NCBI GenBank assembly: GCA_009785545.1
Contig: WQWD01000002.1
Coordinates: 1 to 57,215 of the forward strand
DNA length: 57,215 nt
Direction: 5' to 3'
Source: Treponema sp.
Lineage (GTDB): Bacteria; Spirochaetota; Spirochaetia; Treponematales; Breznakiellaceae
The notes below the pieces were generated by a model. The model was not told where the DNA came from. It saw only the letters and a list, made by a program, of their open reading frames with translations, and ran no database searches. Every line of letters begins with the position of its first letter. Position 1 is the stretch's first letter. Positions 3,145-49,889 of this stretch are shown in pieces. A program made the position numbers and the translations under genes.

Positions 3145-3157
3145 GATATTGTTACGT

Positions 3158-3230
3158 GGTGGATGTAGCTCAGGGGTAGAGTACAAGATTGTGGTTCTTG
3201 TCGTCGCGGGTTCGAGACCCGTCATCCACC
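3158..3230 (+). tRNA. tRNA-His (GTG); left attachment site gene
   Basis: Cloverleaf readable: GTGGATG/CATCCAC acceptor with extra G-1:C73, anticodon loop TTGTGGT, T-arm GCGGGTTCGAGACCCGT. CCA not encoded. Confidence 0.93.
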
Positions 3231-3231
3231 C
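3185..3231. repeat. attL core (47 bp)
   Basis: AAGATTGTGGTTCTTGTCGTCGCGGGTTCGAGACCCGTCATCCACCC, identical to 49843-49889. Confidence 0.93.
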
Positions 3232-3333: not shown

Positions 3334-3353
3334 AGGTCAAGTGGAGGTCAAGT
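3334..3353. promoter_or_regulatory. Two AGGTCAAGT direct repeats, putative integrase arm-type sites (left)
   Basis: AGGTCAAGT at 3334-3342 and 3345-3353 (11-bp period), abutting the integrase ATG. Confidence 0.6.
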
Positions 3354-3354
3354 C

Positions 3355-5186: not shown

Positions 5187-5900
5187 ATGGCTGAGGTAAA
5201 ACCTGCGGAATTCGCCCGCATCTGCGCCGTTGCGCCATCGGTGATATCGCGCAAAATCTCCAATAACACGCTCGTGCGCAATGCCGCAGGGCTGCTCGAT
5301 ACCGAAAACCCCGTCAACGCCCGCTATATCAATAAGCGGCGGCTCGCTGGTGGCGACAAAGTAATCGATACCGCCGCTTCCGCACCAGAACCAAAGCCAG
5401 CGCCTGTGGATTTTACGCGCCTCGGCGATGCTGCGCTCGCAGAATACGCCGGATTGCCACAGCGACTACTCAGCCTCACGCTCCGGGAGCTCGTGCAGCA
5501 GTTCAAAGGGCTGCCAGGGATGCAGGAATACGTACGAATGCTTAAAGACTTGGCGGCGGCCGACGAACGGGATCAAAAGGTGCGCGAACGCCGCCTGCAG
5601 CTCATCGAAAAAGACTTTGTTATCTCTCGGCTCATCCAATATCTGGAAAGTTTAATGCGGCAAATACTGGAATTTCCCGAATCGGTTACGGACGAAATTA
5701 TCGCGCTGGCCCAAGCGCAAGGCACCGAGGCAAGATCGGAAGTCAGCCAAAGGCTGGAGCGCGGACTCTCCCGAATTATTAAAAATTCCAAAGAGGAACT
5801 GATAAATGAGCTTCGCGGGCTACGCTCGAAGTACCAAGAGGACGACGGGCTAGACCAAAAAATCAAAGATACGATTGTCGAAATCATGGAGGACGAATAA
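5187..5900 (+). CDS. Hypothetical phage protein, possibly terminase small subunit
   Basis: First gene of the rightward late operon; N-terminal DNA-binding-like region plus charged coiled-coil C-terminus; position only. Confidence 0.45.
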   Translation: MAEVKPAEFARICAVAPSVISRKISNNTLVRNAAGLLDTENPVNARYINKRRLAGGDKVIDTAASAPEPKPAPVDFTRLGDAALAEYAGLPQRLLSLTLRELVQQFKGLPGMQEYVRMLKDLAAADERDQKVRERRLQLIEKDFVISRLIQYLESLMRQILEFPESVTDEIIALAQAQGTEARSEVSQRLERGLSRIIKNSKEELINELRGLRSKYQEDDGLDQKIKDTIVEIMEDE

Positions 5901-6253
5901 TGAGGTCTTACTGCAAGCATTGTAAAAGTGAAATCACATCGAATACAAACTGGCGGCACGGGGAGGACTGTCCTATTTGTCGCCATGAAAGGGATTATGT
6001 TAAATCACTGGTTACCCCCCCCGACTACGAAACCTCAGCGCAATACGAAAAACGCACAGGCAAAAAGCTCTCCGATCTTGCCGCAGTGTGGATACGCATA
6101 AAAAACATTAGTGCCGAGCCCGACTTCTGGTTATTAGACACGCTTTTTGAAGCAAAGAAATTTTTAGCCGAAGAGTTTGACTTGGGGCGAGCGATAGTTG
6201 TCGCTTATACGCCAGAACCGCCGCCAGGCGAATGGGAGCCAAGCGAGGGATAA
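5900..6253 (+). CDS. Small zinc-ribbon-like phage protein
   Basis: CKHC...CPIC motif pair; stop/start overlap with both neighbours. Confidence 0.55.
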   Translation: MRSYCKHCKSEITSNTNWRHGEDCPICRHERDYVKSLVTPPDYETSAQYEKRTGKKLSDLAAVWIRIKNISAEPDFWLLDTLFEAKKFLAEEFDLGRAIVVAYTPEPPPGEWEPSEG

Positions 6254-8289
6254 TGAACGCAGCGACCGCTCTTTTTACTAATCAAGTTTTTTCCGGCGAT
6301 ATCGATTTCCTTGTCGATCAAATCGGCAAAATAACGGACTCGCTGCACCATGAGCAGCCCAGCGAATTTATCGAGCGAGTGCGCTATCTAACAAGCGACC
6401 TCACGCCGTTTCCTGGCAAGTTTAGTTTTGAAAAGTTCCCATACTTTCGCGAAATCGTCGACTGCTTCAGCCCGCTTGACCCGACCTCTGAGGTCGTACT
6501 TATGAAGGGCGCTCAAATGGGCGCAACAACCGCCGTATTGGAAACGGTGCTGCTATACAACATCATGAGCGACCCCAAGGCGCAGATGTACGTCACCGCC
6601 GACGCAGGGCTTATGAAAACCTCGGTGCAGGTGCGCATCGAAAAAATGATAGACAACGCCGGAGCTCGCGACCTTATATTTTCGCAAAGCCGGAAAAAAA
6701 AAGGCAGCCGCAATACAGGCGACACCGCCATCGCTAAAGAATACCCGGGCGGGTACCTACATTGTTTCGGCGGCCGCAGTCCTGCACGCTTCCGTGGCAT
6801 ATCTTACCCATGCGCCCTTGCCGACGAGGTCGACGCATTTCCGGACTCAATCCCGAAAGAGGGAACGGTTACCGACCTCGTACGCAACCGAACCAAAGCG
6901 TACACAGGCAGCAAGCGCAAAATCTTGTGGACATCCACGCCACTGATAAAACAAACATCAAAAATCGACAAGCTCTACACCGACGGCGACCAGCGGAAAT
7001 ATTTTGTACCCTGTAAACATTGCGGCATGATGCAGGAGCTTGTGTGGCATGGCAAAAACGAGGACGGCTATACATGGGGAATAACATGGCAAAACGACGA
7101 GGACTTTAACCCGCTATTGGACACCGTCGGTTATAAATGCGAAAAACCTGACTGCGCCCAAATAATGAAAAACTACGACAAGGCGGTCATAATTTTACGC
7201 GGCGAGTGGCGAGCGTCGGTAAAGCCAATTGCGCCGAATCGCCGATCTTACCACGTAACGCCGATATACAACCCGCCAGGGATGTACTCATGGGAAGACA
7301 TGGTTCTGCAATGGGTGGAGTGCTGGGACTTAAAAACCAACCGCCTCAAAGACAAGGAAAAATACAGAGTTTTCCGCAACACCACGCAGGGACTTACGTT
7401 CGAGGAGCTCGGCGGCAAGCAAATCGAGTACGAGCGAGCGATACAATTCCGACGCACAGGCTTCGTTGTTGTCAACGATGAGTCCGGGCTTATCGCCCGT
7501 GGCGTACCGAACGATCTCGCCGTACAGGATTCAGGATCCCCGATTCTTATACTCGTGGCATCCGTTGATGTACAGAATGACTGTCTGTATGTCGATGTTA
7601 AAGGTTACAGCGCAGGCGGCGTGACTTGGACTCTGGAGTTTTTTGAAATCAAAGGAAACACTGCCGACTTTAACGGAGTGTGGGATAAACTCGATATTAT
7701 ACTCGGCGACAAGCGATATGTTGGCACAGACGGCAAAGTGTACCGCATCCAAATAACGATGATCGACTCCGGACACAACTCCGATTATGTTTACGAATAC
7801 GTCAAAAAGCGCTCCGGCGGCGTTTTTGCAATTAAAGGCAAAGACTACCTCCAAAATGGCGAAACATATCAATTTTTTAGCACATCGGCACAAGAAAAAA
7901 TCGGCTTTAGTAACGCCCTGCATATAAGCACAGGCAAGCTGAAAGACAGAATAAGTAACGCCATGACATCGTCGTTTTGGATTACGGGACAGTCACAGCC
8001 GGCTTGGTACCCCAACTTTAGAGAGGACAGCAGGGACGATTATTTTAAACAATTTGAGGCGGAGCGCCGTGAGGAAAAACGGGATGCAATTACAAAACAG
8101 TTCCGCGGCTATGTGTGGAAGCAAAAGTTCGGCCAAGACAACCATGCGCTTGACTGTTATGTGTACAACCTTGCGGCACTTGAGCTTGCCGCCGAGTTCT
8201 GGTGCAAAGAACGCCTTGGCTTACCGACGCTGGACTGGACGGCGTTTTGGGAGAGTGCCAAAAAAGGCGAGTTTTATCAGGAGCCATGA
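6253..8289 (+). CDS. Phage terminase large subunit, GpA family
   Basis: FPYFREIVDCFSP...LMKGAQMGATTAVLE ATPase region; nuclease region ASVDVQNDCLYVDV, ITMIDSGHNSDYVYEY, DNHALDCYVYNLAA. Confidence 0.93.
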   Translation: MNAATALFTNQVFSGDIDFLVDQIGKITDSLHHEQPSEFIERVRYLTSDLTPFPGKFSFEKFPYFREIVDCFSPLDPTSEVVLMKGAQMGATTAVLETVLLYNIMSDPKAQMYVTADAGLMKTSVQVRIEKMIDNAGARDLIFSQSRKKKGSRNTGDTAIAKEYPGGYLHCFGGRSPARFRGISYPCALADEVDAFPDSIPKEGTVTDLVRNRTKAYTGSKRKILWTSTPLIKQTSKIDKLYTDGDQRKYFVPCKHCGMMQELVWHGKNEDGYTWGITWQNDEDFNPLLDTVGYKCEKPDCAQIMKNYDKAVIILRGEWRASVKPIAPNRRSYHVTPIYNPPGMYSWEDMVLQWVECWDLKTNRLKDKEKYRVFRNTTQGLTFEELGGKQIEYERAIQFRRTGFVVVNDESGLIARGVPNDLAVQDSGSPILILVASVDVQNDCLYVDVKGYSAGGVTWTLEFFEIKGNTADFNGVWDKLDIILGDKRYVGTDGKVYRIQITMIDSGHNSDYVYEYVKKRSGGVFAIKGKDYLQNGETYQFFSTSAQEKIGFSNALHISTGKLKDRISNAMTSSFWITGQSQPAWYPNFREDSRDDYFKQFEAERREEKRDAITKQFRGYVWKQKFGQDNHALDCYVYNLAALELAAEFWCKERLGLPTLDWTAFWESAKKGEFYQEP

Positions 8290-8388
8290 TGCTTGTAGAA
8301 CAAGAGCTGTTTGGAAAATGAGACAAGATCGCAATCGCCATAATGCGGATAAAAAAACGCCGTAGCGCAAATACTGCTTGAGTTTTAA

Positions 8389-8661: not shown

Positions 8662-8664
8662 GTT

Positions 8665-8856
8665 TTAAGCCTCCAATGCTTCCCGACCTTCCTCAAAGGT
8701 GCTGTACCATTGTGTCGTTTTTTTGCCAAAGAAAATAGCATCTCCCTCCGCTATAGCAGCCATAACTGTGTCATTTAAAGGCAGATTTTGGGCACAAACG
8801 GGACAATCCTCATCAATCCCAATATCAAGAATAGCTTCTGGTTTTGTTATAGTCAT
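8665..8856 (-). CDS. Putative cognate antitoxin (RelB/DinJ-like position, CPVC motif)
   Basis: Immediately upstream of the YafQ-like toxin on the same strand; small acidic protein. Confidence 0.7.
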   Translation of the reverse strand: MTITKPEAILDIGIDEDCPVCAQNLPLNDTVMAAIAEGDAIFFGKKTTQWYSTFEEGREALEA

Positions 8857-8945
8857 AAACCGCTCCTATTCCAAATATAACCGTTTTTTCGAAGAATGAC
8901 AATAGTTAATAGCTTGTTTTATATCCCCGCAAATAAACTGAGCCT

Positions 8946-9251
8946 ATGGCAATAATCGAGGATGGGCACCCCGTCTTGTCGGACAAAAACGTGGCTTGGG
9001 CTGACCTTATAAAACACAGTGAAATTATTATCTTTGAGCTCGATAAAGCTATCCTCGCACTTACGCGTGAAGGGCTCAAAGAATTTAGACTGACTACAGG
9101 GCAGACAACGCATAACGTCACACCTTTAGACCTTCCCGTTTTAATCCAGCGTCGAAAAGATCTGATAGACCAGATCGCACGCATGGAAGACCTAATCGCA
9201 AAAAAACACGCACCGCCTCCGGCTCTTGTGCAGGTGGTGCCAAAATGTTAA
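8946..9251 (+). CDS. gpW-like head-tail joining protein
   Basis: Small protein between terminase and portal; [26 protein letters not shown]. Confidence 0.55.
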
Positions 9252-29438: not shown

Positions 29439-30163
29439 GCAGACACTTTGACGCTATAAAACAATTATTTCCACGCTCACAGGCTTTCGAATTATTTGCG
29501 GATAACGCAAAGCGCAAACTTATTAAAGGTATTTCAGTACTGCCGGAAAATATCCGCAAGGAAGCCGAGCTTGCTTATCTTGATTTATTCCCCGATACAA
29601 CCAGATACCCGGAACGTTGGGAGGAAGTATTTGCTTTGTTTTTTACCGAGGCGGAATTTCCAAAACGGCGTGCGATTATCGATTCAATGTGGAAAATAAT
29701 TTCTGGCGATCAGAGCGGTTCGTTTTTGGAAATGATGCTTGGTTGCATAGATGATCGAATTAAAGTTGTTGAAAATATCCCTGTTAGTAATCCGCGCTAT
29801 TCCGGTGTTGTTTTTATTGCCGTTTGTGGACACCGCTTTATGCGTTGCGGACATCAAAAAGCTGTTTGCGGTTATCGTGAAGGGCATCCAGATTTTGTAC
29901 CAACTATAATTAAAAACGATGCCACAACAGAATATAACATTCCCGAAAACAGCCGTTATTGGGAAAACTGTTTTTTTGTTTGCGCTGGAGTCAGACGAAG
30001 TCCGCGTGGAACTATCCTGTACATCGAACCACTTAAAATAAACGCCGTTTGGCGAAACTATGTCGAGTATTTAATACTCAAAGTAAAACCAGCACATACA
30101 ACAGCTATCGTTTTTATTGATTGGCAAGAAGAAGGAGAAAAAAATGATCAAATTGAACCATGA
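29435..30163 (+). CDS. YmfQ/DUF2313-like tail protein (Mu gp48-like)
   Basis: Position plus AELAYLDLFPDTTRYPERWEEVFAL. Confidence 0.75.
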   Translation: MSRHFDAIKQLFPRSQAFELFADNAKRKLIKGISVLPENIRKEAELAYLDLFPDTTRYPERWEEVFALFFTEAEFPKRRAIIDSMWKIISGDQSGSFLEMMLGCIDDRIKVVENIPVSNPRYSGVVFIAVCGHRFMRCGHQKAVCGYREGHPDFVPTIIKNDATTEYNIPENSRYWENCFFVCAGVRRSPRGTILYIEPLKINAVWRNYVEYLILKVKPAHTTAIVFIDWQEEGEKNDQIEP

Positions 30164-34054: not shown

Positions 34055-35605
34055 CTATGCGCTCATTACAGCCAGAGCGAGTGCTTTCGCCGTATTTACC
34101 GGCACAGCGTTGCCGATTTGTTTAGTTTGTTCCGTGACGTTCCCCTTGAGAACATAATCCTCTGGAAAACCCTGCGCTCGTTTTAATTCATGGTTTTTTA
34201 GCATTCGGAAACGAATATCCAAACACACCCCGGGTTCAATAAGGCAGTGTTCCGCTTTGGTAACAACCGTTGACAACGGCTCATCTATTGAACGCGCTCT
34301 ATTTTTTGCAGAACCCTGCCCAATGTTGAAAGCAAAAGGTTGTACAACAGCGTTTTCATTACTACACGTTAAAGATGGGACAGGGTCTTTAATGGACATA
34401 GTTCTCTCTCCACCGCTATGACACGCTTTAAGCATAAATGGCTCTAACAGCGCGAAGCGGTCTTTTGTGGTAACTGTTTTCAATGGGTTGCTTACCGGCT
34501 CTGTGCCACCGTTACCGTAATATTCCATGATGAGTGGTTCAACTAGCCCAAAATGACATTTAGTAGTTATTGTCCGCAATGGTTGTTCGACCGAAGACGG
34601 CTTATTTTTATGCGTGAAATCCACCAGCATTGGCTGAATAAGATTCACCCTGCCTTGTGCCAGCACAGTATGTACCGGCTGGTCAACAGAACGCGCTCCC
34701 TGTCCTGATTGATGCCCCATTAGTAATGGAACCGGCTCTATAAGCGCGTGATGCGCCCCAGAAGCCGTCACGGACGGCAGTGGTAAGTCTAGGGAGCGAA
34801 CATCGCTTGTACCGTAAAGTACCGCCAGAAACGGCTTTGCGTAATCTCCCCAATACTTCTCAATACCTGCAGCAATTCGGCGAATAGTCGCGTCAGCAAG
34901 CGGCTTCTTGCGGTCGAATATAGAAGTTCCCGGAAGGTTCCAGTCAATTATATCTCGTGCCGGTATCCAAGGTTGACAACCAAATAAACTATCACCAGCA
35001 CCGTCCATGTGTGTTATCTGCGGCCACATAATGCGCTTTTTGCCGCGCACGGCTTGTACGAATAATCTGCGGCGTGTTGTCGGGTCTCCGTAATCCGCGC
35101 AGGTGAGTATTTTCCAATCCACTGTATAGCCAAGACTCCGCAGAGATGAAATAAAACAATTAAATAGTTCTCCCTTTTTATTTTTTATAGGTTGACCTTT
35201 GCTATCCAGCGGCCCCCATGAAAGAAACTCTGGTACATTTTCTATAATTACACGCTTTACATATAACTCTTGTAACCACTTGAGTATTAACCACGCGGAA
35301 GCACGGCTCTGGTCGCTTCTCGGACGACCGCCGCGAGCCACTGAATGATGCGTACATTCCGGCGAAGCCCAGAGCAAGTCAAGTTTCCCTCCGCGTATAA
35401 CCTTTGTCGGATCGATGCGTTCCACAGACTCGCATAAATGTTCCGCGCTTGGGTGATTAGCAGCGTGTGTTTCAAGTGCGCGTTCCCAATGGTTTATTGC
35501 CAGTAGATTTACTTTCATATCTTGCTGGAGTGCTGCTTGCATAATACCAGTTGACTCCCCACCAGCTCCGCAGAACATATCTACCACGTTATAAGTTTTT
35601 TTCAT
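34055..35605 (-). CDS. DNA cytosine-5 methyltransferase
   Basis: VDMFCGAGGESTGI; LLWASPECTHHS (PC motif variant); VIIENVPEFLSWG; RRRLFVQAV; C-terminal RFRMLKNHELKRAQGFPEDY, QIGNAVPVNTAKAL. Confidence 0.93.
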   Translation of the reverse strand: MKKTYNVVDMFCGAGGESTGIMQAALQQDMKVNLLAINHWERALETHAANHPSAEHLCESVERIDPTKVIRGGKLDLLWASPECTHHSVARGGRPRSDQSRASAWLILKWLQELYVKRVIIENVPEFLSWGPLDSKGQPIKNKKGELFNCFISSLRSLGYTVDWKILTCADYGDPTTRRRLFVQAVRGKKRIMWPQITHMDGAGDSLFGCQPWIPARDIIDWNLPGTSIFDRKKPLADATIRRIAAGIEKYWGDYAKPFLAVLYGTSDVRSLDLPLPSVTASGAHHALIEPVPLLMGHQSGQGARSVDQPVHTVLAQGRVNLIQPMLVDFTHKNKPSSVEQPLRTITTKCHFGLVEPLIMEYYGNGGTEPVSNPLKTVTTKDRFALLEPFMLKACHSGGERTMSIKDPVPSLTCSNENAVVQPFAFNIGQGSAKNRARSIDEPLSTVVTKAEHCLIEPGVCLDIRFRMLKNHELKRAQGFPEDYVLKGNVTEQTKQIGNAVPVNTAKALALAVMSA

Positions 35606-35613
35606 AATTCCTC

Positions 35614-36768
35614 CTAGCCAAAAAGCCCTGCCTCATCCGCAATGCGGCGTTCGGCAATTTTTATATATTCAGGGTTTATTTCGCACCCGATGTAACGCCT
35701 TAGATTTTTAACCGCAACCACTGCTGTTGTTCCGGAACCCATGAAGGGATCAAGAACAACTCCATTTTCAGGACAACCGCATAATATGCAAGGGAGTATT
35801 AGTTTTTGAGGGAACATTGCAAAATGACCTAAATCTGACGGCTCACTTGCGACCACCCAGACATCCCGCTTGGTTCGCAACGGTCTGGTTGGAATAGATG
35901 AGCCGTGATGCTGTTCGCTCAGTCCGGTCGCACCTTCTTTTGTGATATACCCACGCTGCGGCCATCGCTCGTGTTCTTTGGATAAAAATGTATTTTTTGT
36001 TTGACAAGAAAAATCTGTCTCGGCATATTTTGCGCTGCCTTTCATAACAGTGTCTCTGCGACCATCGTAAGCAGCTGGCTCAAGGGCATACTGGAAATCA
36101 AAATAATATTTTGTTTTTTTAGAAAATAAAAAAATATATTCATGGGATTTACAAAAGCGATCTTTAACTGATTCCGGCATTACAGAAGGTTTTGACCAAA
36201 TGATGTCTTGCCGCAGGATCCAGCCGTCGTTGATAAGAGCAAATGCAAGCCGCCACGGTATGCCGAATAATGATTTTTGCGGAATAGACTTTATTTTAAT
36301 CGCTTTAACGGCGTGACTTGCTGTATTAGTTGATTGTTTTCCGTTTAATGGTTTTGTGTTCCCGCTATTTTTTCCACTGCCATTGTAAGAATCGCCAATA
36401 TTAACCCATAGCGTTCCTTCATTTTTTAATATGCGTTTTACTTCCCGGAAAACAAGAACAAGTTTTTCAATATATTCTTCCGGCGTATCTTCCAAACCAA
36501 TTTGATGATCTTCTCGGTAAGCACCGCATTTTTTGCAAACAGTTTTGAAAATGGAATCGCCTTTTGGCTTTGCATCACTGGTATAAATTCCTTTAACAAT
36601 TTTATTATCGCGGAAATGATTACACTCTGGATCACCTCCGTACCATGTCGCTGTTCCGTAATCTCTTAATCCGTAATAAGGCGGCGATGTTACGCAACAA
36701 TCCACCGAATTATCGGGTATAGTTTTAAGAGAATCTATATTGTTTCCGGACAGGATGCAGTTAAACAT
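35614..36768 (-). CDS. Site-specific DNA methyltransferase (N4/N6 type)
   Basis: [56 protein letters not shown]. Confidence 0.93.
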
Positions 36769-36863
36769 TATTTGATCAGACTCCCGAATTCTTCAAATGA
36801 TAAAAACTTCCGCCCTTCCAGTTTTACTGGCACTTTTATTACATCAGGGTTAAAATCAGCCAT
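36769..36863 (-). CDS. Very small ORF (31 aa) coupled to the methyltransferase by TAATG
   Basis: [31 protein letters not shown]; stop overlaps next ATG. Confidence 0.45.
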
Positions 36864-37047
36864 TGTTTACCTCCTTGTGTTCCCACATTGTTCTTATTTT
36901 ATGAAAATCATACTTGCGCCCATCTTTCTCATCAAAAAACTTTTGCATTGCTATATCTTTTGCTTTTTTCCTATTACTAGCTTCAATGCTATAGATATAA
37001 GATACTGGGTACGTATACCCAGTTACGCGTATTTCAAACTTTTTCAT
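36856..37047 (-). CDS. Hypothetical small protein
   Basis: 63-aa ORF in the leftward operon. Confidence 0.55.
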   Translation of the reverse strand: MKKFEIRVTGYTYPVSYIYSIEASNRKKAKDIAMQKFFDEKDGRKYDFHKIRTMWEHKEVNNG

Positions 37048-37050
37048 TTT

Positions 37051-37689
37051 TTACCTCACTGCAAATGGATTCGGCGACTCGATATGCGCCGGATATTTTT
37101 CTGCTACGAATTTGACATTGAAATAATCCTCTGAGGCTTTGCTGTACGGCATCACATTAACACTAGAAAACCCAAAAGTATAATCTTTATCATTTTGAAC
37201 AAAAAACACACCGTAACATTCTCTTGTAAGAGTATCACAATGAATAACCGCTCCGTTCATTCCTCTTATTGCCATATTAAAGATTAAGAAAGGTATTGCT
37301 CTGTCGCTTAATTCCTCGCAGATATATAAATATTGAGACGGCTTATAATTGATTGGATCGTGTTGGCATCTATCGCTCTGCCATTGTGCTACCATCATAC
37401 CTCCAGTACCCGCCGCCGGTTCATAGTACATACCACTTTCATGTACTAATTCAGAAACAAGTCCAGCAACGGACATCGGAGTAAAATCCTGTGCCATCTT
37501 TTTTCGCTGTGCGGCTTCCTCTTGAAAATAATTATGCCAAAAATCTTCGTGTAATTTGTAATTAAACAATTTAAGAAATTGAACAAATACGGATTCCCTA
37601 TGTTCCCTATTCAACAGTATTTCGAGCATTTTAGATGGGGCTTTAAATATATCGTCTACTCCAAGTATAAAGTTGATTTTGTCGGTCAT
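37051..37689 (-). CDS. N-6 DNA methylase-like protein lacking a visible NPPY motif
   Basis: QDFTPMSVAGLVSELV...YYEPAAGTGGMMVAQW...CEELSDRAIPFLIFNMAIRGMNGAVIHCDTL; no [DNS]PP[YFW]. Confidence 0.8.
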   Translation of the reverse strand: MTDKINFILGVDDIFKAPSKMLEILLNREHRESVFVQFLKLFNYKLHEDFWHNYFQEEAAQRKKMAQDFTPMSVAGLVSELVHESGMYYEPAAGTGGMMVAQWQSDRCQHDPINYKPSQYLYICEELSDRAIPFLIFNMAIRGMNGAVIHCDTLTRECYGVFFVQNDKDYTFGFSSVNVMPYSKASEDYFNVKFVAEKYPAHIESPNPFAVR

Positions 37690-37700
37690 TATTCACTCCT

Positions 37701-38684
37701 TTAACTTGCTAATAACAACGCTTGAGTTGTTGTATTTAACTTTGATAAATGCGATATAACTATTTCGTTATCCTTGTCTTCAAGTTCTTTAATTATATGT
37801 AAATAAACTTCTTGCGTAGTTGTTGTATTTGCATGACCTAACCTTTTGGCAATGCTTGCAATAGATACACCCGCAAATATCAATAAAGATGCGTGAGTGT
37901 GCCTTAACCCATGTAACGAAATAACAGTTATATCCGCTTTTTTACACAAAGATTCAAGTCGAGCATTTGGCGTTGAATTGAATACACGCCCCCGTACAAA
38001 AAGGGGCTTATCTTGTTCTAAATCTTTTGTTATTAAAAAGAAATCTTCGTTAAGCTGTTCATCTATAATGATTGTCCTTTTGGAGGATGAATTTTTTGTC
38101 TCTGCGAAATCACTTCCAGTTTCATCTATTTTTTTATAACCCCATGTTTTAGATATTTTAACTTTTCTATTCTCAAAATCAAAATCGTTAGGAGTTATCC
38201 CTAAAGCCTCAGCGAATCGTAATCCTGTTTTAAGTAAAAAAAGGATAAGCCAGTCCCAGTTAATTTTGTTATTCTTTTCAAACCACGTTAAATCTAAAAC
38301 TTTCAGTAATTCTTGTACCTCGTTGAAACTAAGAAATTTTGCTTTTTTCTCTGTTGGTGATTTTCCCTTTATAACTACCTTGCGTGTAGGGTCTGTTTTT
38401 ACCAAGCCCTCATCAATGGCATCCAAAATTGCACTTTTAAGATGATGGTGAAAGTCCATTGTCGTTTGCTTTTCATGGGTCTTTGCGTATTCGTTAATCA
38501 AGTGTTGATAATTTCGTTTATTCAGTTCATTTAATGTTAATTGTGGTGAGAGTTCAGACAACCGCTGATGTGTCATTTTATATTTTTGATATGTAACATT
38601 GCGAACCATTCCCTTTTTATAAACTTCCATCCATTCGAAAAAATAATCCTTAAAAAGTTGGTTTTCCCCTTTTGCTTCTAACAC
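37701..38684 (-). CDS. Second tyrosine recombinase/integrase, inside the prophage
   Basis: SAM-like N-domain; LLKTGLRFAEALGI, SLHGLRHTHASLL, AKRLGHANTTTTQEVYLHI. Confidence 0.92.
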   Translation of the reverse strand: MLEAKGENQLFKDYFFEWMEVYKKGMVRNVTYQKYKMTHQRLSELSPQLTLNELNKRNYQHLINEYAKTHEKQTTMDFHHHLKSAILDAIDEGLVKTDPTRKVVIKGKSPTEKKAKFLSFNEVQELLKVLDLTWFEKNNKINWDWLILFLLKTGLRFAEALGITPNDFDFENRKVKISKTWGYKKIDETGSDFAETKNSSSKRTIIIDEQLNEDFFLITKDLEQDKPLFVRGRVFNSTPNARLESLCKKADITVISLHGLRHTHASLLIFAGVSIASIAKRLGHANTTTTQEVYLHIIKELEDKDNEIVISHLSKLNTTTQALLLAS

Positions 38685-39369: not shown

Positions 39370-42300
39370 CTAGAACGGCATACCTTCATCAGATAAAGGC
39401 AATTCGTTCTTGGCGTTTACTTCATAACCAACGATTGTTTTTTCTACAGGGCGGTCTGCGACCTCGTCAAGCGAACGCAAACGCACGCCGACAAAACATC
39501 GCGTCGGCTTTGTCGCATACTCACCCTCGATAGCCACGCGCTTGACCTGCTCTGTTATTTTGTCTTTGTGATTTTTCAAAATTAATTTTGTAAAACGATG
39601 TCGGCTAACAGCTTCGGACTTAGACGAACCTTCGCCGTAACCATAATATGCAGTGTAATGCTCGTACGCTTTTTGTATAACCGTAACAGCAAGCGGCTCA
39701 AAGGAGAAAAAAGCATCGATGTATTTATCGAGGTCACTTTCGACCTCGGCGATGTATCCCATTTTGTGCTGCTCGCATTCTTTAGAAACTGGTAAAATCC
39801 CCTTCATTTCGTTTTTAAACCGCAAGTAATATCCGGCTAACAATTTAATAAATGCGGGAAATTCCGGCTTTAAATATTCGACAAACTCTTCCGGCCGCAT
39901 TGTGCCTTTTTCGTCCGGCTCGTGTGAAACAAGGAACGGAATGACAACCGCCCTCGATATAACCGCAGTATCGTTTGCGTCAAACTTTGGAAGGTGATTT
40001 GTGTTAATAACAATCTGCGCGGTGTTTCTAAAACTTTTTGGAGCTTCGTGCAATCCGCGGGCTGTCACCATGTCGCCGCCAGTGAGTTTTTTCCAAAGAC
40101 CAGCGTTTAACACAGCGCCATCCTCCGGCTCACTAATAAATGCCGCGCCCTTGCCGGGTAACTGCGCTAGATAGGGGGTGGGGCCGTTACTGGAAGCAAA
40201 AACCTTCCCCTTCGGCACGATAACATCCGGTTCCATGGCGCAGATTAAATACTGGTAAACCGCATTCATAATTCGCATTGTCGTGGACTTTCCGGTGTTT
40301 TTGCCGCCAATCCAAAATTGACCCATTTTATAAAAAGCACGCGATGGAATAATAGACAAACAATACATAAGCGTTTCCAGCGTTTCGGAGTTTCTAAAAT
40401 TGCCGCGCATAAAGTTCCATATTTTTTCACACTCGCCGCCATTTTTCACATCGTCAACTTTATATGGCAAGGTGCGACTCCTGTATTCTTGCGGGTGCGC
40501 TGTGCGAAAAACGAGCTCCTTGCCAGAAAAATCCATAACGCCATCAAGGAGCGTTAATGTTTCTTTTATTGCCTCGCCGTCGAAATGCAGCGGATCGTCC
40601 TCGTCGTCGGAATTATGATAAACGCCCTCGGCTTTTAACCCCGCAAATTCGTGTTGTATTTCGACGCGCAATGAACGGCTTTCCAGCTTACTAAGTGTAA
40701 ACATGAGCCTGTTTTTTTCTTTTTCCTTTGCCTCCGACTCGCCGTCTTTTTCTTTTGCTTCTCTCAAAAAGTGTCGCATAACAAGCATTAATGTGTTGTA
40801 AATTACACCTGTAATATCTGGCTCGTGCTGCCAAGTATGGCCGTTAAAAAAATAAAAACGTTTGTCGTTTTTTGCGGCATTGTATATTATTCTGCCGTCG
40901 AAGATATCCGCAAGCATTAAAGCAGCAGAACGGACACCTCCGTAATAGGCAAAGTTTCTGGCATTTTCGTTTATATCCAACTCATCAAAATCAAGTTTAA
41001 ATTTTGTTTTTTGAATTTTAATGCGTTGCAACAATTCCTCAATGGGAGTTAATTCTTTTTCTATTTGCCGTTGCAAATAACGGCTTAAATATTTAGATGC
41101 TATTTCCAACAAGAACGCCGGAGTAGCATCGTTTTTATTTGCGATTTCCTTGTGAACTGCACCCCATGATTTAAGACAATTAACCGTATCCTCATCTGGA
41201 AATGCTTTTATACACGCAGTTATAAACCGCTGTGCATCAGCAGGGTCTAATGCGCTTCTTTTAATTTTGCGTAACAAACATTTTAAACGCTTACTACTTA
41301 AATCTTGAAAAAACTCGAACGATTTATGCTTTGGCTCTTTGACTGACGGCGGAGGCTGAACGTATTCCTTGGCACTCTCGATCGCCGCCGCTATTACGTC
41401 CTTTCTTCTGGCCAGGATAATAGCATCGGGGTCGTTACAGCCTGCATCTTGTGATAATTCGGCGAGCTTTATTTTTCCGGCATAACCCGTGCGTTGCAAC
41501 ATCATGGGAATGTTGGACTTGCGTTCTTTTAACGAAATTAAACCGCTCGCCTCGCGCCCGTGGTCGTCACCATCGTACATTAAAATTATTTCCGGTACGT
41601 TCAGCAGATAATCTTTGACCTTGGGGCCAGTCAGCCCCGACGTACCGCCAGCTGATATCACATTTTTATGTCCGGCAGCGACACAAGAGAGCGCATCCAT
41701 TTCACCCTCGACGATTATTGCGGGCAACGTCTCGTCAATTTTAAACGGCATGGGGAATGTAGTGCCGCCGACAGTGTTGCGCTTTTCACACCTGTGACAA
41801 AACCCGCCTTTTTGATACTTTCCGCACTCAAGCATTTTGTCAATTTTTAACAACTCGTCCGCGTCGGTTGCATTTTCTAACGCTTTGCGGTATACCTCGG
41901 AGCTTTTACAAGTGTCGCAATACAGCTTTTGATAATAATGCAATTTGTAACCCGTTCCCAGCTTCATTATGATGCCAGAGTGTTCCCACGCCGATTTTTC
42001 ATTGTCGCGCCCCTTGGTAGGAATGCCGCACTTTCTAAATACGTCGCTTGACAGGTCTTTACGTACAATGTCGAGTCCGGGCCAATACAGGAAATAATCT
42101 AAATAAAATGGAATGATATCGTCGGGGTAGTTTGTGATGCTTCCAGCTTCTTGCAAGTGCGTCCCGCCGCCAGTACTGTAATTAGCACGCTCTTCTAAAA
42201 AGCGCCTTATTTGATTCTCGCTTGCAGGATTTTTTCGTAGATACTCTTCGAGCGTTTGCATAGCCCTTTCGTCGGGCTTAAATTTTACATTGTCTTTTTT

Positions 42301-42618
42301 TGCGTAACTCGATAGCGGCGACGATGGTGCTATATAAGTAGAGCTTCCAAAAAAACGCTCAATAAAATTAACCTGCTCGTTAAAATCTTTTATGCCCTCG
42401 AAGTGCTCTACCATGTCATAGATGCCGCCGCCTATCCCGCACGCAAAACAACCGCAGTATTGTACGCCGTCTTTTTCGTACATACTAAACGACGGCTTAG
42501 AATCTCCGTTCTTGTGTGCGCTTGTATTAGGACAAGCAGTGGGGTTTTTGGAATTGTCAACACCTTTATACTGGAGGTATTCAAAAAGCCTGTTTCTGTA
42601 TTTATCTGCTCGACGCAC
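39370..42618 (-). CDS. Phage primase-helicase (zinc finger, Toprim, D5/SF3-like helicase)
   Basis: YCGCFACGIGGGIYDMVEHF zinc finger; AIIVEGEMDALSCVAAG Toprim; QFWIGGKNTGKSTTMRIMNAVY Walker A. Confidence 0.92.
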   Translation of the reverse strand: MRRADKYRNRLFEYLQYKGVDNSKNPTACPNTSAHKNGDSKPSFSMYEKDGVQYCGCFACGIGGGIYDMVEHFEGIKDFNEQVNFIERFFGSSTYIAPSSPLSSYAKKDNVKFKPDERAMQTLEEYLRKNPASENQIRRFLEERANYSTGGGTHLQEAGSITNYPDDIIPFYLDYFLYWPGLDIVRKDLSSDVFRKCGIPTKGRDNEKSAWEHSGIIMKLGTGYKLHYYQKLYCDTCKSSEVYRKALENATDADELLKIDKMLECGKYQKGGFCHRCEKRNTVGGTTFPMPFKIDETLPAIIVEGEMDALSCVAAGHKNVISAGGTSGLTGPKVKDYLLNVPEIILMYDGDDHGREASGLISLKERKSNIPMMLQRTGYAGKIKLAELSQDAGCNDPDAIILARRKDVIAAAIESAKEYVQPPPSVKEPKHKSFEFFQDLSSKRLKCLLRKIKRSALDPADAQRFITACIKAFPDEDTVNCLKSWGAVHKEIANKNDATPAFLLEIASKYLSRYLQRQIEKELTPIEELLQRIKIQKTKFKLDFDELDINENARNFAYYGGVRSAALMLADIFDGRIIYNAAKNDKRFYFFNGHTWQHEPDITGVIYNTLMLVMRHFLREAKEKDGESEAKEKEKNRLMFTLSKLESRSLRVEIQHEFAGLKAEGVYHNSDDEDDPLHFDGEAIKETLTLLDGVMDFSGKELVFRTAHPQEYRSRTLPYKVDDVKNGGECEKIWNFMRGNFRNSETLETLMYCLSIIPSRAFYKMGQFWIGGKNTGKSTTMRIMNAVYQYLICAMEPDVIVPKGKVFASSNGPTPYLAQLPGKGAAFISEPEDGAVLNAGLWKKLTGGDMVTARGLHEAPKSFRNTAQIVINTNHLPKFDANDTAVISRAVVIPFLVSHEPDEKGTMRPEEFVEYLKPEFPAFIKLLAGYYLRFKNEMKGILPVSKECEQHKMGYIAEVESDLDKYIDAFFSFEPLAVTVIQKAYEHYTAYYGYGEGSSKSEAVSRHRFTKLILKNHKDKITEQVKRVAIEGEYATKPTRCFVGVRLRSLDEVADRPVEKTIVGYEVNAKNELPLSDEGMPF

Positions 42619-42887: not shown

Positions 42888-43080
42888 TAAACAATTTTTT
42901 TATAGCATGCTCTTTTAACGTAACCGGAACTTCGCCAGACGCTATTAGCGCAACCTCGGCGGCACTATACCTAACGCCGTCCGCACAAAATATATCCCCT
43001 GTCTTTTTACTTATAGCGATCTCTTGCTCAACGGCTTCAGCGTACATATAAATAAAATTAGGGTTGCGCTCTTTTTCCAT
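42721..43080 (-). CDS. Hypothetical phage protein
   Basis: MEKERNPNFIYMYAEAVEQEIAISKK...; ATG overlaps the ParB stop. Confidence 0.6.
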   Translation of the reverse strand: MEKERNPNFIYMYAEAVEQEIAISKKTGDIFCADGVRYSAAEVALIASGEVPVTLKEHAIKKLFNGEIVGYERKAADDKREFVKNGGAESPDNAKSYGGKVAPPPAVGVENGSGELDIY

Positions 43081-44084
43081 TACTGCCCGGCAAGCTCCGC
43101 AAGTAAGAGCGCCCATATTTCGTAGGCAGCGTCTGTTTTATATTCGTACTCATAACCAGCTTCGCCACTGCTTACTTTGTCGATGTATTCTTGTATAACT
43201 ACCTGCACCGAATTGAGGTCAACTTTTTTATGTGGCGGTATTTCCAGTGTTCGTGCCGGAGATTGCGATGCAGATTTTTTCGCCGACGTTGTTTTTGTTT
43301 CTTGTGGCGGCAATACGTGGATATTGCCATCGTCCGGCAAGGTATCGTCGTCCATAAGCGGATCGCTAAATTCCGCACTTTCGTTTTTTTCTGGCGAAGT
43401 GTTATCTATCGAAACCAGCGAGGGCTCTTTGTTAGATGAATTATACTCACGCATTAATTGCCGAGCGCAAGAGAGCGTGCCGCCACCGTCAATTAATTTT
43501 TGCACCATTCGTGCCATGTGTTCTTTTTTTACCCCTGTGATTTCAGATAACGCTTGCGTGGAAATATTAGAAATTTCGGTAATGCGTTTTTTGTCGCCCT
43601 GCGCTTCTTTTTCTGCAGCCGAGCGGATTTTATAAGCGGTAAGGTTGCGTGAAATAAAAGTCCCGTTTAACGACAGGCGAGCTGCTATTTCTTTATTGGT
43701 TATACCTGACTGCGCGAGCTTATAAATACCAGCCTCTCTGTCTCGCGGGCTTAGATCGTCTCGCTGTAAATTTTCGATTAGCTGGAGTGTCAGCCTTTCG
43801 CCGCTAACTATAACAGAGTCAAGCATAGAGACGCTTTCGCCACGCTCCCGCAGCCTTAAACACGCAAGCCGCCGCCTGTGCCCTGCGACAATCTCAAACA
43901 TTTCAAGACCCGTGTCGTTATTTTTGCCGAGCGATTTAACCAGTGCTGGCTCTAACTGCCCGACAGTTAAAATGCTGTTGGCAAGCTCGTCGATATTGTT
44001 GTAATCAGTGCGGACATTTTCGCCGACGATTATCTGATCAAGTGGTATTTGCCGGAACCGTCCGGCGTTTTCTAATTTTGGCAT
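43080..44084 (-). CDS. ParB-like partition protein
   Basis: IPLDQIIVGENVRTDY...EIVAGHRRRLACLRL...LQLIENLQRDDLSPRDREAGI, HTH GITNKEIAARLSLNGTFISRNL. Confidence 0.92.
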   Translation of the reverse strand: MPKLENAGRFRQIPLDQIIVGENVRTDYNNIDELANSILTVGQLEPALVKSLGKNNDTGLEMFEIVAGHRRRLACLRLRERGESVSMLDSVIVSGERLTLQLIENLQRDDLSPRDREAGIYKLAQSGITNKEIAARLSLNGTFISRNLTAYKIRSAAEKEAQGDKKRITEISNISTQALSEITGVKKEHMARMVQKLIDGGGTLSCARQLMREYNSSNKEPSLVSIDNTSPEKNESAEFSDPLMDDDTLPDDGNIHVLPPQETKTTSAKKSASQSPARTLEIPPHKKVDLNSVQVVIQEYIDKVSSGEAGYEYEYKTDAAYEIWALLLAELAGQ

Positions 44085-44085
44085 A

Positions 44086-44376
44086 TCACATCTTCTCCTT
44101 TATTGAGTTAAATATATCTTTGTAAATTTCAAGCAGCACCCTTTTTAGTTTTGCGTAACACTCGCGGACTTGCTGTTGGCTAACGATTAGTTTTTGCTGC
44201 TCTTCGCCAGACGAAGCGCACAAGTCGCTTAATTCTAAAGTCCGCAACGCTTTTACAGCGTCGTCAAAACAACGTTGCGCAGATTCAATTTTTTTATAAT
44301 CCTCGTCCGATTTTTCGACGAGTTCGCAAAGCATTCTTTTTGTTGCTACTGTCAATTCTGTTATTTTGCTATTCAT
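44086..44376 (-). CDS. Hypothetical protein
   Basis: Coiled-coil-like ORF between parA and parB. Confidence 0.55.
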   Translation of the reverse strand: MNSKITELTVATKRMLCELVEKSDEDYKKIESAQRCFDDAVKALRTLELSDLCASSGEEQQKLIVSQQQVRECYAKLKRVLLEIYKDIFNSIKEKM

Positions 44377-44614
44377 TGACAAACTCCTTTTTTTTTGGTA
44401 TTTTTGCACCTAACTCGACAGTGCAGAGCGTTTCCGGCGTAAAGGCAACAACGCCTTTGGTTTTTAATTCGTTCGCCATCGTATACGCTAGATCGAGATC
44501 GCCAGTAAACATTACGGGAAATTTATTTTTTATCGCACACAAAATTTCCTTTTTTTGTGCGCCGGACAGTTTTTTAAGCAGTGTCCTAGATATAAAGTTT
44601 TCTATTTTCAACAT
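44369..44614 (-). CDS. Hypothetical protein
   Basis: Complete ORF overlapping the ParA stop. Confidence 0.55.
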   Translation of the reverse strand: MLKIENFISRTLLKKLSGAQKKEILCAIKNKFPVMFTGDLDLAYTMANELKTKGVVAFTPETLCTVELGAKIPKKKEFVNE

Positions 44615-45327
44615 TTAATACCTCCGCCAATAACGTATTTAACATAGTCCTCTAGGCGCTTGCGAACCGAAGCTGCCAATGGGTAATGCACGTCATTAGT
44701 TAGTTTTTTTAGCGACGCAATATATGGCACAGGGTCTGGGATTAAAAACTCGCCGAATTCGCTGCGGTACATTTCAACGATGCCCGGCAAGTTAGTTTTT
44801 GAGCTAAAGGCATTCATGCAGACAAATGTTTCTGCGTCTAATCCGTATTGTTGCAATTCCGAAAAGTACAACTTGGTTGCCTCAAAGTCTATGCGAGAGC
44901 AGGTGCCTGGAATTACAAGCGCATTTGCCGCAAACACCGCGTTGCGCGTGTGCGAGCCAACATAACCTGGCGGGTCAATTATTATATAATCGTACCGCTC
45001 CATTAACCCCGATCGCTTTAAATTTATTTTTAATTGTACATCGGAAATATTATTTAACAAAACATTTTTAATATTCCCGGGTATTAGGTCGATGTTTTCA
45101 GAGCATTTATAAACGCCTTGAAAATTTTCGACCGCCGCCGATAGAAATTCCATCGACGTGTAATCCTTTAATAATTGACCATAACACTGCGATAGGGCGC
45201 AGTTGGAATCTAAGTCAATGCCAAGGACTTTTTTTCCGTTTCTTGCCAGTGTTTCCATAGCCAGCACGTTAAGCGTTGTTTTTCCCGTCCCGCCTTTCCA
45301 AGAGGACGTTGTAATAATCATACACAT
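44608..45327 (-). CDS. ParA-family partition ATPase
   Basis: ITTSSWKGGTGKTTLNVLAMETLARNGKKVLGIDLDSNCALSQ; YIIIDPPGYVG. Confidence 0.93.
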   Translation of the reverse strand: MCMIITTSSWKGGTGKTTLNVLAMETLARNGKKVLGIDLDSNCALSQCYGQLLKDYTSMEFLSAAVENFQGVYKCSENIDLIPGNIKNVLLNNISDVQLKINLKRSGLMERYDYIIIDPPGYVGSHTRNAVFAANALVIPGTCSRIDFEATKLYFSELQQYGLDAETFVCMNAFSSKTNLPGIVEMYRSEFGEFLIPDPVPYIASLKKLTNDVHYPLAASVRKRLEDYVKYVIGGGIKC

Positions 45328-45393
45328 AATGTCTCCTTGTGAAGTTTTTATTTTTTGTTTGCCGCGCCGCTTCACTCTGCGCGGTCTTAGAAA

Positions 45394-45747: not shown

Positions 45748-45928
45748 GCTCCTCCTTCATTTTGCTTAAATGCGCCTTGGCATTTTTTAGCGTTTTGGTC
45801 ATTTTGTCGATGCAGTCAATAATTTCTAAATAACACGGCGGTTTGGCGGTCAACTCATTTTGTAGATTATTAAAATCGCCCATAAGCTCTAATAAGACCT
45901 CTATGAGTTCGTGCCTTTCGTCAATCAT
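45698..45928 (-). CDS. Hypothetical phage protein
   Basis: Complete ORF; ends overlap both neighbours. Confidence 0.5.
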   Translation of the reverse strand: MIDERHELIEVLLELMGDFNNLQNELTAKPPCYLEIIDCIDKMTKTLKNAKAHLSKMKEELADVKDTHTDANTDPS

Positions 45929-46290
45929 TAATCCGCACCCCTTTCCGCGTAATTATCGGGCAGCTTAACGTCGTATTTATCCGCGTAATCTCTTAGCTCC
46001 CTGTCTGTTATCGCAAGCCAAGGAATAACATCGTCTCTGTGCCAACAGCGACGGCCGCCGACCATCTGGTAATTACGTCCGCAGCATGGGCGTAAAAAAG
46101 AGCGCTGGCGGTACGTTGTTAATAATGGGCCGCCCTTAATAGCAGCCGCCTGTTCCAACGTCACCCACTCCGGCAACCCCTCAAACCGCGATTTCTCTTC
46201 AGCACCTTGCCGCTGCTTTAGGATTTCCAATGTCATATGCTCAACCGCAATTTTTATCCCTTGTAATTCCAGGGATTCGCTGCTATTCAT
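45928..46290 (-). CDS. Putative excisionase/HTH-like DNA-binding protein
   Basis: VTLEQAAAIKGGPLLTTYRQRSFLRPCCGRNYQMVGGRRCWHRDDVIPWL. Confidence 0.5.
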   Translation of the reverse strand: MNSSESLELQGIKIAVEHMTLEILKQRQGAEEKSRFEGLPEWVTLEQAAAIKGGPLLTTYRQRSFLRPCCGRNYQMVGGRRCWHRDDVIPWLAITDRELRDYADKYDVKLPDNYAERGAD

Positions 46291-46524
46291 TACCTACCTC
46301 CAAACCGCTGCTTGCCAGCGTTTGCTTTACCCATTCGCACTCAACCAGTGCCGTACCGCGAATAAACACAGGCGCTCCTTTACTATCTTTTAGGCGTTTT
46401 AACATCCACACGCTCGATACCCCTGTTTGGAAACTTGCGTCACAAATACTCCGATATCGAATGCCTCCCAAATAAACAGGGCAGGGACTGCCGGCCGTGT
46501 GGCGAGGCGCAATGGTGCAGGTAT

Positions 46525-47343
46525 TCAAGATGTTTTCTCCGCATAAAACTCGCCGCTCTTGGCAGATTCCCAAAACGCCGTCCAGTCCAGTGTTGGCAAG
46601 CCGAGGTGCTCCTTGCACCAGTATTCGGCGGCAAGCTCCAGCGCGGCGAGGTTATACGCATAGCAATACAGCACGTTGTTATCTTTTTTTTTGCAGCACT
46701 CCGCCGCGAGTTGCTTAAAATAATCGTCATGACAGTCCTCTCTAAAATTAGGATACCAAGGCGGCTGTAGTTGCCCGGTAACCCAAAACGATGAGGTAAT
46801 GGCACTGCTAATTCTGTCCTTGAGTTTGCCTGTGCTTACGTGCAGGGCGTTAGCGAAGCCGAGTTTTTCCTGCGCCGACGGGCTAAAGAACCGATATGTT
46901 TCACCGCTGGCAAGACAGTCCGTGCCCCTAACGGCAAAAGCGCTCCGGCGGCGGGTTTTGACATACTCGTAAACGTAGTCCGCGTTATAGCCAGAGTTGA
47001 TCATCGTGATTTGTATCCGGTACACCTTGCCATCCGTGCCGACGTACCGCTTGTTATTGAGGATCGTATCGAGCTGATCCCACACGCCGTTAAAGTCGGC
47101 GGTGTTGCCTTCAATTTCGATAAACTCAAGCGTCCACGTTATGCCGCCCGCGCTGTAACCTTTAACATCTACGCACAGGCGGTTTTTTTTCACACCAACG
47201 GATGCCACGAGTATGAGGATCGGCGAGCCGGAATCCTGCACGGCGAGATCATTCGGTACGCCGCGGGCAATAAGCCCGGACTTTTCGTTACCGACAATAA
47301 AGCCTGTGCGTTTGAACTGGAGCGCCCGCTCGTACGAGTACAT
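46525..47343 (-). CDS. Stand-alone paralogue of the terminase large-subunit nuclease domain, predicted catalytically dead
   Basis: Residue-by-residue similarity to the C-terminal half of the 6253-8289 product (SGLIARGVPNDLAVQDSGSPILILVAS...; LGLPTLDWTAFWESAKxGEFY). Own ATG. Confidence 0.92.
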   Translation of the reverse strand: MYSYERALQFKRTGFIVGNEKSGLIARGVPNDLAVQDSGSPILILVASVGVKKNRLCVDVKGYSAGGITWTLEFIEIEGNTADFNGVWDQLDTILNNKRYVGTDGKVYRIQITMINSGYNADYVYEYVKTRRRSAFAVRGTDCLASGETYRFFSPSAQEKLGFANALHVSTGKLKDRISSAITSSFWVTGQLQPPWYPNFREDCHDDYFKQLAAECCKKKDNNVLYCYAYNLAALELAAEYWCKEHLGLPTLDWTAFWESAKSGEFYAEKTS

Positions 47344-47348
47344 AGTCT

Positions 47349-47440
47349 TATTCCCCCATAATCTCTTTAACTTTTAAAAGAAAGCGCTGGAGTTCCTGCG
47401 TTGTGTGCTCGTGCGCTTCGCTAATTTGTTTTTCAGCCAT
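47349..47440 (-). CDS. 30-aa ORF upstream of the terminase-like copy
   Basis: MAEKQISEAHEHTTQELQRFLLKVKEIMGE*. Not in the ORF track. Confidence 0.35.
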
Positions 47441-47465
47441 TTTTTGCCTCCATTTATCCCCCTCC

Positions 47466-47666
47466 TCAAGCCGCAGGCTTTCCGCCAGAGCTTTTTTCAT
47501 GCTGTTGCGCATATACTTCCGGCATATTGTTTTTGATCGCCTCCTCGATAAGAAACTCGATTTCGCCGCTTATTGACCGTTTGTGTTTCTGCGCTAAATC
47601 ACGAACAGCTGCATCCATCCAAATAGGTAAACTGATTGAACTTGGTTTTTTCTGTGTTTTCATCAT
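47466..47666 (-). CDS. Arc-like ribbon-helix-helix DNA-binding protein
   Basis: SSISLPIWMDAAVRDLAQKHKRSISGEIEFLIEEAIKNN. Confidence 0.75.
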   Translation of the reverse strand: MMKTQKKPSSISLPIWMDAAVRDLAQKHKRSISGEIEFLIEEAIKNNMPEVYAQQHEKSSGGKPAA

Positions 47667-49842: not shown

Positions 49843-49889
49843 AAGATTGTGGTTCTTGTCGTCGCGGGTTCGAGACCCGTCATCCACCC
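49843..49889. repeat. attR core (47 bp of the tRNA-His 3' part)
   Basis: Identical to 3185-3231. Confidence 0.93.

What the first reader, a model, noticed from the sequence alone, without database searches (positions are those of the whole stretch)
46525..47343. Second, nuclease-domain-only terminase copy with all three expected catalytic acids replaced
Seen directly: the 272-aa leftward ORF aligns along nearly its whole length with the C-terminal half of the terminase at 6253-8289, starting just after the ATPase part (EYERAIQF -> SYERALQF) and ending at the same C-terminus (LGLPTLDWTAFWESAK). Differences fall on the positions expected to bind metal in the GpA RNase-H-like nuclease: ASVDVQ -> ASVGVK (D to G), ITMIDSG -> ITMINSG (D to N), and FGQDNHALDCYVYN -> DNNVLYCYAYN (a ~20-residue deletion that also loses the third D). 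The rest stays open and well conserved, including exposed segments such as SGLIARGVPNDLAVQDSGSPILILV, and the copy has its own ATG in the early operon. Random decay would not be expected to hit all three catalytic positions while leaving the frame intact. Inference: a catalytically dead terminase decoy, for example blocking packaging of a co-infecting related phage, modulating the phage's own terminase, or holding the early/late switch. An alternative is a fossil from recombination with a related phage.
Basis: partly seen in the sequence, partly recalled or inferred. Interest (0 to 1): 0.93.

Follow-up and report, generated by a model that had tools for sequence, protein, structure and literature searches.

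The report
Dead terminase fragment kept by prophage
A prophage of termite-gut-type treponemes carries, among its early genes, a second copy of only the back half of its DNA-packaging enzyme with the cutting site destroyed; two related phages carry their own version in the same place, and the sequence evidence suggests a protein kept for a new use, most plausibly to jam the packaging of phages, although slow decay of the window's own copy is not excluded.

Summary
ORF 46525-47343(-), 272 aa, is 73% identical to the C-terminal half of the resident GpA-type TerL (6232-8289) and lacks the ATPase half. Across 28 TerL nuclease domains only three acids are invariant (D446, D512, D641). They sit where an RNase-H triad should in the AlphaFold model. 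The copy has G, N and Y there and keeps the 11 other invariant residues (chance 1/364). A 19-codon in-frame deletion just before D641 removes a beta-hairpin.

New here: two other phages (IMG/VR contigs G200 and G201) carry a stand-alone version in the same early slot upstream of the 111aa-120aa-ParA-ParB-primase block. It starts and ends at the same residues, lacks D446 and D641, and lacks the same region. The tree favours two separate captures. Codon models give omega 0.47 for that pair (below 1, p=0.0007) and 0.43 for the window copy (CI about 0.25-0.92), against 0.06 for TerL. So constraint is relaxed but present, and it is firm only for the pair. G201's slot also encodes a protein with a segment of the small terminase.

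Best explanation: a catalytically dead TerL C-domain that jams packaging by occupying the portal or pairing with TerL. Decay of the window copy remains possible. No direct functional evidence.

The parts
46525..47343 (-). stand-alone TerL C-terminal (nuclease-fold) protein, 272 aa, catalytic acids lost
47194..47196 (-). residue 50, Gly in place of catalytic Asp446 of TerL (GAT to GGT); residue 52 is Lys in place of near-invariant Gln448
46996..46998 (-). residue 116, Asn in place of catalytic Asp512 of TerL
46666..46668 (-). residue 226, Tyr in place of catalytic Asp641 of TerL (His638 also lost, Asn)
46683..46684 (-). point of the 19-codon in-frame deletion (between Lys220 and Asp221) that removes the beta-hairpin region before the third acid
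46543..46653 (-). segment for residues 231-267: last long helix plus C-terminal tail, corresponding by position to the helix and portal-binding tether of lambda TerL; no copy-specific changes at 28 clade-invariant positions
47348..47512 (-). 54-aa ORF ending 4 bases before the ATG of the stand-alone copy, with a GGGGGA ribosome-binding-like stretch
47466..47666 (-). 66-aa Arc/RHH-like ORF at the head of the early block, 87% identical to its G200 counterpart
46283..46618 (-). 111-aa conserved early ORF just downstream (frame opens inside the end of the stand-alone copy)
45928..46290 (-). 120-aa conserved early ORF
44608..45375 (-). ParA-like ATPase
43080..44084 (-). ParB-like protein
39370..42618 (-). 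primase-like replication protein (Toprim, DUF5906)
6232..8289 (+). full-length resident TerL (GpA_ATPase and GpA_nuclease), all three catalytic acids present; in-frame ATG also at 6253
5187..5900 (+). small terminase TerS (PHROG 57); its residues 87-136 recur in a G201 early-slot protein
3185..3231 (+). attL-like copy of the 47-bp direct repeat, 3' end of tRNA-His (3159-3231)
49843..49889 (+). attR-like copy of the 47-bp direct repeat

Best explanation
The ORF is a real accessory gene in the early slot of a tRNA-His prophage. It encodes the C-terminal domain of a GpA-type large terminase without the TerS-binding/ATPase half and without nuclease activity. Shown: the domain make-up, the loss of all three catalytic acids with the fold-defining residues kept, syntenic stand-alone copies in two related phages, and relaxed but non-neutral evolution (firm for the pair, marginal for the window copy). 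Inferred: it is expressed, and it works as a dominant-negative packaging blocker. By analogy with lambda TerL, the retained last helix can pair with the matching helix of an active TerL at cosN and the retained C-terminal tail can dock on the portal, so the protein would occupy portal vertices or form cleavage-dead mixed complexes and stop packaging of a competing related phage (or, if the early operon is off late, spare its own).
For: Triad loss with the other 11 invariant residues kept. The equivalent D294, D347 and D429 of G20c TerL are each needed for cleavage (PMC5389553). Same slot, same start at the ATPase/nuclease junction, same end, same deleted region and the same two acids lost in G200/G201. 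Tree and AU test favour two captures (p=0.03 with 38 rows, 0.07 with 11), and the stem of the G200/G201 pair evolved at TerL-like omega 0.08 before the truncated state. Omega of the pair is 0.47, below 1 with p=0.0007, or 0.52 with p=0.004 from the pair alone. Neutral chance of no stop codon is 0.015 for the pair. The window copy has no specific change at 28 clade-invariant C-terminal positions against 23 of 163 elsewhere (p=0.03). G201's slot also holds a TerS segment (tblastn 9e-9, profile 2.6e-12). Prophage and satellite proteins that block packaging or assembly exist: Rpp and Ppi, Tab.
Against: No expression or interaction data. Omega 0.43 for the window copy has a CI of about 0.25-0.92, and part of its branch may predate the truncation, so its later evolution could be neutral. 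D512 is kept in the G200/G201 copies. The copy would also threaten its own phage, and no counter-gene was identified. The gene is absent from the other seven early regions examined. The C-terminal conservation test is nominal (p=0.03, chosen after seeing the data), and in the G200/G201 pair the same stretch has no synonymous changes either, so there it says nothing about selection. The TerS segment in G201 may be unrelated in function.
Confidence: 0.42

Rival explanations
1. Recombination relic: a piece of a related phage's TerL was caught in a recombination-prone early slot, has no function and is decaying; the frame is open by luck and youth.
For: The window copy's specific changes fall evenly on the three codon positions (20/19/19) against 6/5/19 to 12/9/44 in TerL. 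Omega is seven times that of TerL, and omega=1 is only marginally rejected for the window copy (p about 0.03). The slot is hypervariable with shared module ends. The copy derives from an L005-like TerL rather than the resident one. Copies are rare.
Against: Two sister stand-alone copies have diverged by 114 substitutions with omega 0.47-0.52, significantly below 1, with no stop and no frameshift. The same start, end, site and lost acids recur in a lineage the tree separates. Changes at invariant positions are concentrated on the catalytic triad.
Confidence: 0.35
2. Self-regulation: the dead domain modulates the phage's own TerL, for example by holding it off the portal or damping premature cleavage until late in the cycle.
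For: It lies in the early leftward block while TerL is in the late rightward block; 77% identity to the resident TerL (gaps left out) makes interaction plausible.
Against: It is absent from relatives with the same early block and from the contig of a close TerL relative, L006 (possibly partial), and it is closer to another phage's TerL than to the resident one. An essential regulator should be constant.
Confidence: 0.1
3. Immune decoy: it occupies host defence proteins that sense TerL (Avs type) without triggering them, protecting the phage early in infection.
For: Avs1-4 are triggered by the large terminase and portal proteins (PMC12931631). An early accessory slot is a usual place for counter-defence genes.
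Against: No Avs system was looked for in these hosts; it is unknown whether the C-domain alone binds Avs; PADLOC gives no match for the protein itself.
Confidence: 0.08
4. DNA-binding or structural RNase-H-fold protein with a new role unrelated to packaging; the pox-resolvase and RuvC-like core is kept as a DNA-binding platform.
For: The RuvC-like fold is kept. The two lineages share basic residues at 448-449 (K/R, K) where TerL has Q and mostly N.
Against: The retained C-terminal tail has no known DNA role, and nothing links it to DNA processing.
Confidence: 0.05

Closest known systems
GpA-family large terminase C-terminal domain (lambda gpA type, PF20454)
   Same: Homologous over its whole length, with the same fold, last helix and C-terminus
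   Different: A separate early gene; no ATPase or TerS-binding half; all three catalytic acids and the hairpin lost
Rpp proteins of Gram-negative PICIs and Ppi of SaPIs (phage packaging interference)
   Same: Accessory proteins of mobile elements that block packaging of a related phage by binding a terminase subunit; Rpp mimics the TerS DNA-binding domain (PMC6739421)
   Different: They target TerS, come from satellites, and are not a TerL domain; here interference is inferred only
Tab, tail assembly blocker of a Pseudomonas prophage
   Same: Prophage-borne protein that stops virion assembly of an invading related phage (PMC10884400)
   Different: [quoted passage not shown] no such partner was identified here
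Herpesvirus UL15.5
   Same: A stand-alone, N-terminally truncated terminase product made besides the full-length one; dispensable in HSV-1 and of unknown function (PMC3079670)
   Different: Made from the same gene as full-length UL15, so not a diverged second gene

Membership tests
GpA-type large terminase (functional TerL) | N-terminal ATPase domain with Walker motifs | tested here: not met
   Pfam and PHROG scans match only the nuclease part
GpA-type large terminase (functional TerL) | Two-metal RNase-H/RuvC nuclease with three catalytic acids | tested here: not met
   D446G, D512N, D641Y at the only three invariant acids of 28 relatives; fold kept
GpA_nuclease domain family PF20454 (by descent) | Profile score above the curated cut-off | tested here: met
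   80.1 bits against 22.5; G200/G201 copies 46.9 and 27.7 bits
Phage packaging interference proteins (Rpp/Ppi-like, by function) | Binds a terminase or portal component | not testable with these tools
   No binding data; retained helix and C-terminal tail match lambda TerL's pairing helix and portal tether by position only
Phage packaging interference proteins (Rpp/Ppi-like, by function) | Lowers yield of a related phage | not testable with these tools
   Needs an infection assay
Phage packaging interference proteins (Rpp/Ppi-like, by function) | Sequence homology to Rpp or Ppi | not tested
   Rpp and Ppi sequences were not compared; the protein is homologous to TerL whereas Rpp mimics TerS
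Pseudogene | dN/dS near 1 and broken frames in relatives | tested here: inconclusive
   Rejected for the G200/G201 pair (omega 0.47, p=0.0007); marginal for the window copy (0.43, CI about 0.25-0.92); no stops in any of three

The most novel reading that the evidence does not exclude
Phages of these treponemes have at least twice turned the C-terminal half of a large terminase into a separate, catalytically dead early protein that blocks packaging, and at least one of them also carries a small-terminase segment in the same slot. This would be a class of inter-phage weapon made from the packaging machine's own domains.
Probability: 0.28. Interest if true: 0.82.

Novelty: new variant of a known kind. 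Interest (0 to 1): 0.6.

Why it matters
Known packaging-interference proteins act on the small terminase or on other assembly steps; my literature searches found no phage that carries a dead large-terminase domain as a separate gene. If true, it is a natural dominant-negative reagent for asking which part of a GpA-type TerL holds the motor on the portal and how TerL subunits pair at cos. It would also show that phages arm themselves by copying and disarming a rival's essential enzyme.

Tried and rejected
(1) Assembly artefact or broken full-length gene: rejected. No ATPase-half homology lies upstream and two other phages have the same arrangement. (2) Simple duplicate of the resident TerL: less likely than descent from an L005-like TerL (lnL 4.2 better). 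(3) One common origin of all three copies: disfavoured by tree and AU test but not excluded (p=0.03/0.07); a patchwork origin by gene conversion was looked for and no window of the copy is closer to the G200/G201 copies than to TerL. (4) L035, L036 and L018, short frames that looked like more stand-alone copies: L035 and L036 are partial or broken full-length genes, L018 is a 106-aa fragment with the third acid intact. (5) Further copies in 200 family and 395 class genomes: none. (6) Sequence search of PDB for residue mapping: no terminase hit; the mapping rests on conservation, on the predicted fold, and on Foldseek matches to the Sf6 gp2 and SPP1 G2P nucleases, whose E-values are weak (0.002-0.004). 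(7) A TerS profile that wrongly included the G201 protein itself was rebuilt without it. (8) Consensus promoters and terminators near the gene: no more than shuffles.

Full report
1. Observation. The ORF at 46525-47343(-) is 272 codons with an ATG start and no interruption. It matches TerL (6232-8289) from residue 400 to 684 at 73% identity with a single 19-residue gap. DNA homology starts and stops with the coding homology and does not extend into the ATPase half. Pfam sees only GpA_nuclease in the copy, but both GpA domains in TerL. The whole lies in a prophage with a 47-bp repeat at both ends (3185-3231, 49843-49889), the left one being the 3' end of tRNA-His.

2. The acids. Among 36 TerL frames (mostly full length, a few partial), 31 near-invariant columns were found; the copy differs at six: D446G, Q448K, D512N, K535R, W629 deleted, D641Y. 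In a stricter set of 28 domains including relatives at 25-28% identity, 14 columns are invariant and the only acids are D446, D512 and D641; the copy changes exactly those three (p=0.0027). In the AlphaFold model of the TerL domain (mean pLDDT 86) the three lie on the first core strand, at the end of a later strand and at the start of the last long helix, the RNase-H layout (the layout itself is general knowledge). Foldseek's best PDB matches are the Sf6 gp2 and SPP1 G2P terminase nucleases, though with modest E-values. In G20c TerL the D294N, D347N and D429N mutants had the lowest nuclease activity of those tested. The model of the copy keeps the core and the C-terminal helices with high confidence, while residues around 195-220, where the hairpin is lost, are of low confidence. 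Inference: the protein folds but cannot cut.

3. Relatives. IMG/VR contigs G200 (12.7 kb) and G201 (34.7 kb), both from metagenome 3300027864, encode stand-alone proteins of 248 and 250 aa, 51% and 50% identical to the window copy. No full-length TerL lies in either contig; G201 otherwise runs colinear with the window's late region from portal onwards, so its TerL probably lies beyond the contig end. Both lack D446 (Leu) and D641 (Asn), keep D512, have Arg at 448, and lack an overlapping larger stretch before the third acid. The position is the same in all three: downstream of a small first ORF and upstream of the conserved 111aa-120aa-ParA-ParB-primase block. Seven other early regions with that block (L074, L077, L096-L100; L097 has only 1.9 kb upstream) have no copy. 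No further stand-alone copy was found in 200 family and 395 class genomes.

4. History. The protein tree puts the window copy next to L005 and the window TerL, and the G200/G201 pair outside that clade. Holding all three together costs 23 lnL units (AU p=0.03) in the large tree and 13 (p=0.07) in a small one. The branch leading to the pair has omega 0.08, as in TerL, so most of its divergence happened in a working terminase. The simplest reading is two separate captures of the same segment in the same slot. A single origin is not excluded.

5. Selection. Both differ from TerL (p=3e-12, 5e-19); omega=1 is rejected for the pair (p=0.0007) and marginally for the window copy (p=0.028). The result does not depend on where the window copy joins the TerL clade (p=0.03-0.05), and from the pair alone omega is 0.52 (p=0.004). 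Simulated neutral change of the observed size leaves the frame open in 1.5% (pair) and 0.8% (window copy against L005) of runs; the latter overstates the time spent as a copy, and with half the changes it is 7%. So the pair is under protein-level constraint; the window copy may be, but neutral evolution since truncation is possible.

6. What is kept. In the window copy, changes private to it at positions identical in four related TerLs number 23 of 163 before residue 231 and 0 of 28 after it (p=0.03). TerL pairs show no such contrast. In the G200/G201 pair this stretch has no synonymous changes either, so it may simply be recently exchanged and is not evidence of selection. In lambda TerL the region after the endonuclease centre is a helix proposed to pair two TerL protomers, followed by a portal-binding tether, while the TerS-binding domain is N-terminal (PMC9026076). 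The copy therefore keeps the parts that would pair with TerL and dock on the portal and lacks the parts that would bind TerS and drive translocation. This assignment is by position and analogy.

7. The slot. It is hypervariable, with small ORFs, a repeated leader with a CCCCTCC...GGGG hairpin in G200/G201, and a recurring C-terminal tail (TDNRPAA) at the end of several ORFs, including the G201 copy. G201 also has there a 159-aa ORF whose residues 88-137 match residues 87-136 of TerS (46%, tblastn 9e-9; profile 2.6e-12 with that sequence left out), while its front half matches a L074 protein without that segment. TerS of the window is recognised by PHROG 57. A second packaging-derived piece in the same slot fits an interference role but could also reflect a slot that gathers fragments.

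8. Mechanism and rivals. I favour a dominant-negative packaging blocker (0.42 for the whole chain; about 0.6 that the proteins are functional at all, my estimate). Precedents for the principle are Rpp and Ppi, which block terminase, and Tab, a prophage protein that blocks tail assembly of invaders and is counteracted in its own lytic cycle. The main rival is a decaying relic (0.35), strongest for the window copy. Self-regulation and an Avs decoy are less likely. What is not shown: expression, binding, any effect on phage.

9. Verdict. By descent it belongs to the GpA nuclease family; it fails the defining features of a working terminase. By proposed function it would be a new variant of packaging interference.

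Noticed in passing
L069:6358-6837 (-), G201 early slot: 159-aa ORF with a small-terminase segment (residues 88-137) joined to a front half that in L074 exists without it.
   Followed up: partly
L007 and L008 upstream of the stand-alone ORFs (L068 about 3120-4300, L069 about 8100-9000): A leader with a GC-rich hairpin (CCCCTCCTTGTGGGG ... GAGGGGCTTTT) recurs before several early ORFs, and several early ORFs end in the same peptide tail TDNRPAA; this looks like a modular exchange system.
   Followed up: no
window 34055-38684: Three methyltransferase-like genes in a row next to an integrase-like gene (37701-38684); a second integrase-like gene lies at 3355-4656 beside the tRNA-His end.
   Followed up: no
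window 31406-31865: Internal tandem repeats of roughly 70-80 bp within the 633-aa ORF 30117-32018, possibly a tail or adhesin-type protein.
   Followed up: no
window 43080-45375: ParA/ParB pair in an integrated tRNA prophage, next to a primase; suggests a phage-plasmid ancestry of the replication block.
   Followed up: no
L018 (G099:C137:17185-17400): 106-aa frame matching only the last part of the TerL nuclease with the third acid intact; a remnant in another treponeme genome.
   Followed up: partly
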